A stretch of 64,000 nucleotides of DNA from Spirosoma sp. (lineage in GTDB: Bacteria > Bacteroidota > Bacteroidia > Cytophagales > Spirosomataceae). The DNA lies in the NCBI RefSeq assembly GCF_026391055.1, contig NZ_JAPLET010000026.1, positions 868,001-932,000 on the forward strand. The letters are read 5' to 3'. Shown here one piece after another: positions 21,694 through 23,304 of the stretch. How positions within the stretch are numbered: position 1 is the first letter of the stretch; each line of letters begins with the position of its first letter. Under the pieces are notes generated by a model. The model was not told the DNA's origin and ran no database searches. It saw only the letters and a list, made by a program, of their open reading frames with translations. A program made the translations under genes and the position numbers.

Positions 21694-21726
21694 ATAAAAA
21701 ACGCCTGACTAATGCAGGCGTTTTCA
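21694..21726 (-). terminator. Rho-independent terminator of the Zeta-like kinase operon
   Basis: Minus strand: aaaacgcctg-cattagt-caggcgtttt followed by TTTATT. Confidence 0.8.
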
Positions 21727-21758: not shown

Positions 21759-21920
21759 CTATAAATCACGGGCTCTGACATGAACGGGTTTGCCGTCGCG
21801 TTCCACGACCAGGGTATCATCGTCTCGTTTTGCCTTTTCAACAACTTTTTGAACCGCCCGGCGTATTCCTGCCAATACGGCTTCATTGCTAGGAATTGGT
21901 TTCACCTGACTTGCTTTCAT
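21759..21920 (-). CDS. 53-aa putative partner of Zeta-like kinase (absent from the ORF track because it is <60 aa)
   Basis: Translation from ATG at 21920: MKASQVKPIPSNEAVLAGIRRAVQKVVEKAKRDDDTLVVERDGKPVHVRARDL, stop TAG; overlaps kinase 3' end by 32 nt. Confidence 0.7.
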   Translation of the reverse strand: MKASQVKPIPSNEAVLAGIRRAVQKVVEKAKRDDDTLVVERDGKPVHVRARDL

Positions 21921-22482
21921 AATTCAGAATGGTTTTCCAAATGTCTTTTTTTAACACAATAGTTTCGCTATCAATTCCACCCGTAGCTACCGTCTCCGCA
22001 ACTATTCCAGCATTATTGAAAACGGCAAAACAATCACAAACAGGAACATATAGTTTAGTGAGGTTAATCATACTTCGCCCGTATCGTCTGTCTATAACAT
22101 CCGGTGGAATATTATGTCCTCCCCGAGAAACGCGCATGGCAACTCGCTCCTTTGATACTTCGGCTGAAGGTAGCCAGAAATAATAAAGACTTACGACATA
22201 ACCCATTTTTTGTGCTCTTCGTATCGTTTGCACATACGAACGAGTAGACAATGTTGTCTCAAAAGCGAAGTCAACTTCTTGCTTCATGAGGTGTTCAATG
22301 CGCTGCAACATAATCCGTCCAGCTTCAAAAGCTGCTGCATCAGGCTTAAATGGTGAAAGTCCCCGAGTGATCTCGTCAGCATTGACAAACTCCCACACAT
22401 TCAATACCTCCGGTAATAGTGTATACGCAGCGGTGGTCTTCCCCTCCCCATTGGGTCTGGCCATGATATACAGATTAGGCAT
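21889..22482 (-). CDS. Zeta toxin-like P-loop kinase
   Basis: MPNLYIMARPNGEGKTTAAYTLLPEVLNVWEFVNADEITRGLSPF...FAFETTLSTRSYVQTIRRAQKMGYVVSLYYFWLPSAEVSKERVAMRVSRGGHNIPPDVIDRRY; ORF extends to 22503. Confidence 0.85.
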   Translation of the reverse strand: MPNLYIMARPNGEGKTTAAYTLLPEVLNVWEFVNADEITRGLSPFKPDAAAFEAGRIMLQRIEHLMKQEVDFAFETTLSTRSYVQTIRRAQKMGYVVSLYYFWLPSAEVSKERVAMRVSRGGHNIPPDVIDRRYGRSMINLTKLYVPVCDCFAVFNNAGIVAETVATGGIDSETIVLKKDIWKTILNYESKSGETNS

Positions 22483-22486
22483 AGCG

Positions 22487-22687
22487 TTAATCGGTCTCTT
22501 CAAGCGTAAAGATATGCTCTACGGCCTTGCCGAAGACCTGCGCCAGTTTCAGAGCCAGAATGGTAGAAGGCACGTAACGCCCGGTTTCAATCGAGTTGAT
22601 CGTCTGCCGACTAACGCCAATTCGATCGGCCAGATCAGCCTGCGACAGGTTGTGCTCCGCCCGCTCTACTTTCAGTCTATTCTTCAT
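22487..22687 (-). CDS. XRE family helix-turn-helix transcriptional regulator
   Basis: MKNRLKVERAEHNLSQADLADRIGVSRQTINSIETGRYVPSTILALKLAQVF. Confidence 0.95.
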   Translation of the reverse strand: MKNRLKVERAEHNLSQADLADRIGVSRQTINSIETGRYVPSTILALKLAQVFGKAVEHIFTLEETD

Positions 22688-23157
22688 AAAGCCAGCAGGT
22701 TAGTACTGTTCCGATGAATAAGCCAGCGAAACCGAATGATAAAGACCAGCAACACCGTGAACATATTGTAGATCATGACATTGAAAAATGCTTCATCGTA
22801 GACGGTCAAAATGGCGATGGCTAAGACGATGTAGTTCGCATATACGCTCCATTGTAGCGCTTCGAGCCGTAGCTGGCCAATCATTTCATCTTCTACTTTT
22901 TCGCGGGAGAAAGCAATTAGCATTAAACCAATGATCACTCCGATAGCCGCTACTTCGTCCGTCAGATCCTGGTTATCCATTAAGTGTGTTACCGAATGAC
23001 CAGACGTTATGGTAAATGACTCACTTAGCCACCGAGCAGTTAACCAGCCAACCTTAAAATCTGCATACATAGCCGCAAACCCCAAGATTGCTGACGGAAC
23101 AAAAACAATCCAGCCAATAAGCCGGAAGCGATGCGGGAAAAGCCACTTTGTTTTCAT
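22684..23157 (-). CDS. Hypothetical multi-pass membrane protein co-transcribed with XRE regulator
   Basis: Start MKTKWLFPHRFRLIGWIVF; several hydrophobic helices; 4-nt overlap with XRE gene. Confidence 0.75.
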   Translation of the reverse strand: MKTKWLFPHRFRLIGWIVFVPSAILGFAAMYADFKVGWLTARWLSESFTITSGHSVTHLMDNQDLTDEVAAIGVIIGLMLIAFSREKVEDEMIGQLRLEALQWSVYANYIVLAIAILTVYDEAFFNVMIYNMFTVLLVFIIRFRWLIHRNSTNLLAL

Positions 23158-23165
23158 AGATATGT

Positions 23166-23222
23166 AAAGTTTATTTGACACACCAAACGTAAAGTTTATT
23201 TTTCAAAATGTCAAGTTTATTT
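23166..23222 (-). promoter_or_regulatory. Putative promoter and triple operator of the membrane protein-XRE operon
   Basis: Three direct copies of (a)aagtttattt (23166, 23191, 23212); on minus strand TTG-N20-TACGTTTG fits the Bacteroidetes TTTG/TAnnTTTG promoter. Confidence 0.55.
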
Positions 23223-23304
23223 TACACAAGTAGTATAAAAAAGGCACGGGTCAATACCCGCGCCAGTATTCCAGCATGCACAGGAATAATGCCTATGCTT
23301 GCAT

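What the first reader, a model, noticed from the sequence alone, without database searches (positions are those of the whole stretch)
21759..23157. Compact four-gene unit: membrane protein, XRE regulator, Zeta-like kinase with atypical P-loop, and hidden 53-aa partner
All four ORFs are codirectional and overlapping or abutting, with operator-like repeats upstream and an intrinsic terminator downstream (21694-21726). The kinase resembles Zeta/PezT toxins, but its Walker A begins R-P-N-G-E-G-K-T-T, where GPNGAGKT is usual. The partner (RRAVQKVVEKAKRDDDTLVVERDGKPVHVRARDL) resembles small proteins that, as I recall, usually lie upstream of Zeta-like kinases; here it is downstream. Its integration with an XRE/membrane pair may be a variant toxin-antitoxin or stress/defence module.
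Basis: partly seen in the sequence, partly recalled or inferred. Interest (0 to 1): 0.66.

Follow-up and report, generated by a model that had tools for sequence, protein, structure and literature searches.

The report
Probably disarmed Zeta-type toxin-antitoxin operon
In a Spirosoma bacterium a gene for a probable cell-stopping enzyme and a tiny protein that probably keeps it in check share an operon with a membrane protein and its regulator; the operon recurs in related species, the enzyme gene is repeatedly broken there while the small partner survives, and in this genome the enzyme carries damage in its energy-binding loop.

Summary
The four genes are real, codirectional on the minus strand and tightly packed: MEM 22684-23157, XRE 22487-22687, KIN 21889-22482, ATX 21759-21920. 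Three operator-like repeats precede them and a terminator hairpin follows. The same order recurs in about a dozen Spirosomaceae genomes, in Spirosoma at one chromosomal site, so the linkage is not chance. MEM-XRE and KIN-ATX also occur without each other: two modules sharing an operon. KIN belongs to the Zeta/PezT kinase superfamily (Pfam PF06414; best solved-structure matches zeta and PezT). ATX is a helix plus beta-hairpin protein in no Pfam family above threshold. It lies DOWNSTREAM of KIN in nearly all Bacteroidota relatives, so that order is the rule here. Best evidence for toxin-antitoxin: in 24 relatives KIN is broken or gone while ATX is an intact ORF; I found no relative of at least about 45% identity with intact KIN and no small downstream ORF. 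AvrRxo1:Arc1 shows the same pattern. The window's Walker A (RPNGEGKT) breaks a glycine conserved in the 25 other intact kinases aligned; the only other R9 copy seen has a premature stop. I read it as a recently disarmed toxin, ordinary in kind. Toxicity and co-transcription were not tested.

The parts
22684..23157 (-). MEM: 157-aa membrane protein, conserved FSREKVEDEMI..LRLEALQWSVYANY motif; no Pfam family at threshold
   Evidence: XRE directly downstream in all 30 homologous loci inspected
22487..22687 (-). XRE: 66-aa HTH_3 regulator
   Evidence: PF01381 E=5.7e-16; 75-98% identical in the MEM loci inspected
21889..22482 (-). KIN: 197-aa Zeta/PezT-superfamily P-loop kinase
   Evidence: PF06414 37.5 bits, cut-off 22.3; AF2 pLDDT 90; Foldseek best 1gvn_B 6.5e-8, then 3q8x and 2p5t
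22432..22458 (-). Walker A of KIN, RPNGEGKTT: G9R and A13E
   Evidence: G9 in 25/25 other intact kinases, A13 in 24/25; lower pLDDT over residues 11-20
21759..21920 (-). ATX: 53-aa helix plus beta-hairpin protein, putative antitoxin
   Evidence: family alignments A1 and A5; AF2 pLDDT 90; conserved downstream of KIN
23162..23228 (-). Three operator-like repeats (TGTMAA-N6-TTKACA), presumed XRE binding sites
   Evidence: the exact palindrome is at only 4 places in the genome, two of them here
23184..23214 (-). Bacteroidota-type promoter candidate TTG-N20-TACGTTTG among the repeats
   Evidence: read from the sequence; consensus from general knowledge; TTTACGTTTG conserved in many relatives
21694..21726 (-). 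Intrinsic terminator hairpin with U-run
   Evidence: z = -2.7

Best explanation
The operon carries two modules. MEM-XRE is an autoregulated pair: XRE probably binds the three palindromic repeats and represses its own promoter, with MEM likely acting on XRE at the membrane (inferred). Behind it sits a KIN-ATX toxin-antitoxin pair: KIN is a Zeta/PezT-type kinase that in its active form would phosphorylate a small nucleotide-sugar or nucleotide metabolite and stop growth, and ATX, a helix-hairpin protein read from an overlapping frame just downstream, neutralises it by binding. The pair is inherited at one site and tends to decay toxin first. In this genome the kinase carries G9R and A13E in its ATP-binding loop and is most likely inactive or strongly weakened, with ATX still intact. 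Shown: gene anatomy, homology, conserved order, decay pattern, P-loop substitutions. Inferred: toxicity, neutralisation, repression by XRE, loss of activity here.
For: Zeta_toxin Pfam match above cut-off; best solved-structure matches are zeta and PezT. All residues invariant across 26 aligned relatives (N11, G12, G14, K15, T16, D36, E75, R113, R117, GGH, R132, R133 and others) are retained; the deviations among 62 highly conserved columns are G9R, A13E and A39T. ATX follows KIN in nearly all relatives. Decay is asymmetric: 24 genomes have broken or absent KIN with intact ATX; in G026, G011, G020, G039 and G084 the kinase is gone or nearly gone and ATX is intact. R9 recurs in G004, which has a premature stop; another relative, G334, has K15Q in an otherwise intact ORF. 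The kinase evolved under purifying selection (pairwise dN/dS about 0.07-0.22, dS saturated) and the window copy is not faster than its closest homologue, so any loss is recent. No second kinase in the genome. Zeta loses toxicity when its Walker A lysine is replaced (K46A; PMC6356619).
Against: No toxicity, binding or transcription data. Length alone makes the kinase the more frequent first casualty: with 197 against 53 codons, 24 of 24 has a chance of about 0.003 by my own arithmetic, before allowing for shared ancestry. Some breaks could be draft-assembly errors. The catalytic lysine is intact, so R9/E13 might be tolerated. By profile alone 19 intact kinases lack an intact recognised ATX; most of these show a divergent small ORF on inspection, but distant G280, G288 and G425 do not show a clear one.
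Confidence: 0.62

Rival explanations
1. The window kinase is an active toxin with a tolerated P-loop variant; the operon is a fully working toxin-antitoxin module.
For: K15, T16, D36, E75 and the lid arginines are retained; full-length ORF; low dN/dS and no acceleration; glutamate at the 13 position occurs in some other P-loop ATPases (general knowledge).
Against: G9 is kept in 25/25 other intact kinases and in the Walker A segments shown in the phylum survey; the only other R9 copy seen has a stop; two P-loop changes occur together.
Confidence: 0.2
2. KIN is not a toxin but a metabolic or repair kinase (polynucleotide or sugar kinase-like) and ATX is a small activator or chaperone.
For: Polynucleotide kinases and other P-loop kinases also match the fold, more weakly; the neighbours include a rhamnose mutarotase and a dehydrogenase.
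Against: Zeta and PezT rank first and PF06414 passes its cut-off; frequent loss of the kinase with retention of the small partner is the reverse of what an activator would show.
Confidence: 0.12
3. All four proteins form one functional circuit in which MEM-XRE senses envelope stress and controls the kinase, so the quartet is a single stress or defence system.
For: Order and junction conserved in about a dozen genomes; shared upstream repeats and downstream terminator; Zeta toxin acts on a cell-wall precursor (PMC6356619).
Against: MEM-XRE persists where the kinase is gone, and KIN-ATX sits directly behind a cysteine-rich-domain gene, NadA, a RecN-like or an HsdS gene elsewhere; no defence-family match for the window kinase.
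Confidence: 0.15

Closest known systems
epsilon-zeta and PezAT (solved structures 1GVN, 3Q8X, 2P5T)
   Same: Zeta-type kinase fold, best structural matches; conserved lysine, acidic and arginine residues; kinase with a small partner
   Different: Here the partner is downstream, is predicted as a helix plus beta-hairpin with no significant solved match, and shows no DNA-binding domain. KIN is shorter (197 aa; the matched zeta and PezT chains are 240-272).
AvrRxo1:Arc1 (PMC4938570)
   Same: Zeta-superfamily kinase with the antitoxin gene downstream; arc1 is intact downstream of all avrRxo1 homologues including pseudogenes, the same decay pattern as here
   Different: KIN is about half the length of AvrRxo1 (414-421 aa); similarity of ATX to Arc1 was not tested; AvrRxo1 is a secreted effector acquired horizontally, KIN sits at one site across a genus
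Non-canonical PezAT of Mycobacterium, Rv0366c-Rv0367c (PMC6362051)
   Same: Zeta-like kinase lacking the N-terminal helical region, with a non-canonical partner; shown bacteriostatic and relieved by its antitoxin
   Different: Antitoxin upstream and 129 aa with a ParD-like region
Plasmid zeta-like kinases of Proteobacteria and Firmicutes annotated 'zeta toxin family protein'
   Same: about 28-40% identity to KIN over the matched part; small abutting partner gene
   Different: Partner upstream in those inspected

Membership tests
Zeta/PezT kinase superfamily | Zeta_toxin domain PF06414 above the gathering score | tested here: met
   37.5 bits against 22.3, E=2.2e-9; the aligned stretch covers residues 53-146 only
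Zeta/PezT kinase superfamily | Zeta-like fold | tested here: met
   AF2 pLDDT 90; zeta and PezT are the eight best matches, TM-score 0.60-0.74 on the query
Zeta/PezT kinase superfamily | Intact Walker A GxxxxGK[ST] | tested here: not met
   First glycine is R9 in the window; met in the 25 other intact relatives aligned. Membership of the family rests on fold, Pfam and the relatives; this copy fails the motif.
Zeta/PezT kinase superfamily | Phosphorylation of UDP-N-acetylglucosamine | not testable with these tools
   needs an enzyme assay
Type II toxin-antitoxin | Adjacent co-oriented small partner gene conserved with the kinase | tested here: met
Type II toxin-antitoxin | Kinase toxic alone, neutralised by the partner | not testable with these tools
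   indirect support from asymmetric decay
epsilon-zeta / PezAT proper | Epsilon-type or PezA-type antitoxin upstream of the kinase | tested here: not met
   partner is downstream, predicted helix plus hairpin, no significant solved match
Phd/YefM antitoxins | PF02604 above the gathering score | tested here: not met
   14 bits against 29.8; best aligned member E=7.7e-4
Known anti-phage defence systems | PADLOC match | tested here: not met
   none for KIN, ATX or MEM; HTH-domain matches for XRE; weak scattered hits for some relatives of KIN

The most novel reading that the evidence does not exclude
The kinase with RPNGEGKT is not dead but repurposed: a pseudokinase that, held by ATX, feeds signal into the MEM-XRE pair, so that a toxin-antitoxin module has become a regulatory part of a membrane sensor operon.
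Probability: 0.07. Interest if true: 0.6.

Novelty: new variant of a known kind. Interest (0 to 1): 0.36.

Why it matters
It gives a natural series of intact, point-damaged, frameshifted and deleted Zeta-like kinases, many at one chromosomal site, with the small partner kept, which makes toxin-first decay of a chromosomal toxin-antitoxin pair directly testable. It also points to a small putative antitoxin family (helix plus hairpin, downstream of the kinase) that Pfam does not hold, common in Bacteroidota and seen on a cyanobacterial plasmid and in a Verrucomicrobia bin.

Tried and rejected
Rejected: that the four genes are chance neighbours; that the locus is a recent mobile insertion (same neighbours, rhaM and a peptidase S15 gene, in many species); that KIN is an old pseudogene. 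Led nowhere: phmmer and profile searches of solved structures for KIN and ATX; Foldseek for ATX; Rfam; PHROGs for KIN, ATX and MEM; plasmid search with ATX; paper searches for COG4185 and for zeta toxin with Spirosoma. The operator palindrome was not found in the 400 bases upstream of KIN in five loci where MEM-XRE is absent or detached, so it goes with MEM-XRE.

Full report
What is there. On the minus strand four ORFs lie head to tail: MEM 22684-23157, XRE 22487-22687, KIN 21889-22482 and ATX 21759-21920. Successive genes overlap by 4 nt, are 4 nt apart, and overlap by 32 nt. Three direct repeats lie just upstream of MEM; they carry the palindrome TGTMAA-N6-TTKACA, two copies exact and one degenerate. 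This region, with TTTACGTTTG, which fits a Bacteroidota -7 element (general knowledge), is conserved upstream of MEM in most relatives. The exact palindrome occurs at only four places in the 8-Mb genome, two of them here. A hairpin with a U-run follows ATX. The genome is probably a Spirosoma: four of the six named contigs found with KIN are Spirosoma, and two of them match by length and place loci that the genome search labels same genus.

What the proteins are. KIN passes the Pfam Zeta_toxin cut-off. An AlphaFold2 model with 26 aligned sequences has pLDDT 90, and its eight best solved-structure matches are zeta and PezT, followed by polynucleotide kinases. XRE is a plain HTH_3 regulator. MEM matches no Pfam family at threshold, nor do its aligned relatives, and it is followed by XRE in all 30 loci inspected. 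ATX matches nothing above threshold; Phd/YefM is a weak suggestion. Its model is one long helix and a beta-hairpin with no significant solved counterpart.

The linkage is real but not obligate. MEM-XRE-KIN-ATX, or its remnants, stands in the same order in about a dozen Spirosomaceae genomes, and in Spirosoma mostly at one site between L-rhamnose mutarotase and an S15-family peptidase gene. Several genomes keep MEM-XRE and have lost the kinase; others keep KIN-ATX behind a cysteine-rich-domain (LutA-like) gene, NadA, a RecN-like gene or a type I restriction specificity gene. In G025 a piece of the XRE tail still precedes KIN, which suggests that MEM-XRE was deleted there. I read this as two modules in one operon.

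Partner order. In this family it is the rule: nearly all relatives in Bacteroidota, and those on a Geminocystis plasmid and in a Verrucomicrobia bin, have the small gene downstream. The upstream order was seen only in distant plasmid-borne zeta-like kinases.

Decay. Among the loci tabulated, 54 genomes have intact KIN and intact ATX, 24 have broken or absent KIN with intact ATX, and 8 have KIN broken or absent with ATX missing, partial or not recognised. By profile, 19 more have intact KIN without an intact recognised ATX; on inspection most of these hold a divergent small ORF downstream, and I found no clear exception among relatives of at least about 45% identity (G062 and G065 have 47-48-aa ORFs without the hairpin). 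Length alone favours hits in the kinase, so the asymmetry is suggestive (about 0.003 under a length-only null, my arithmetic, ignoring relatedness); complete kinase loss beside an intact ATX in several genomes strengthens it. The same pattern is reported for AvrRxo1:Arc1 (PMC4938570).

The P-loop. The window reads RPNGEGKTT. G9 is kept in 25 of 25 other intact kinases aligned and A13 in 24 of 25; with A39T these are the only deviations among 62 highly conserved columns. G004 has R9 too, with a premature stop, and G334 has K15Q. Pairwise dN/dS is low and the window copy is not faster than its closest homologue, so the gene was under selection until recently. Zeta toxin loses toxicity when its Walker A lysine is replaced (PMC6356619); whether G9R does the same is not tested here. 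My reading is recent loss or weakening of toxin activity with the antitoxin retained.

Limits. Toxicity, binding, transcription and repression are inferred. The decay count mixes isolates and draft or binned genomes and is not corrected for phylogeny.

Noticed in passing
L010 (G012) and L025 (G009), kinase codon 37/38: Two kinases whose partners are of different allele types carry a near-identical 21-base stretch, CCGGGCCGYCGTTRCGGTTGC, in place of 5 bases at the same site, which shifts the frame. The motif is dispersed in Spirosoma genomes (up to 6 copies with at most one mismatch, none in the backward control).
   Followed up: partly
L188, L190, L194: In three genomes of one genus of the phylum (g133) a KIN-ATX pair lies 2 nt behind an ORF that looks like a type I restriction specificity subunit; the L188 one was confirmed by Pfam.
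   Followed up: no
L087 (Geminocystis plasmid): A 52% identical kinase with its downstream small gene lies on a cyanobacterial plasmid near an RloB family gene.
   Followed up: no
L001-L011, ATX and KIN: ATX comes in two main allele types in Spirosoma (AGIRRAVQKV and GFRLAHKRL). The window kinase is closest to G032 (77%) although the flanks are closest to G035 and G026, which suggests exchange of alleles at the site.
   Followed up: no
window 22684-23157 and alignment A4: MEM defines a membrane protein family without a Pfam match at threshold, found with the XRE gene in every locus inspected.
   Followed up: partly
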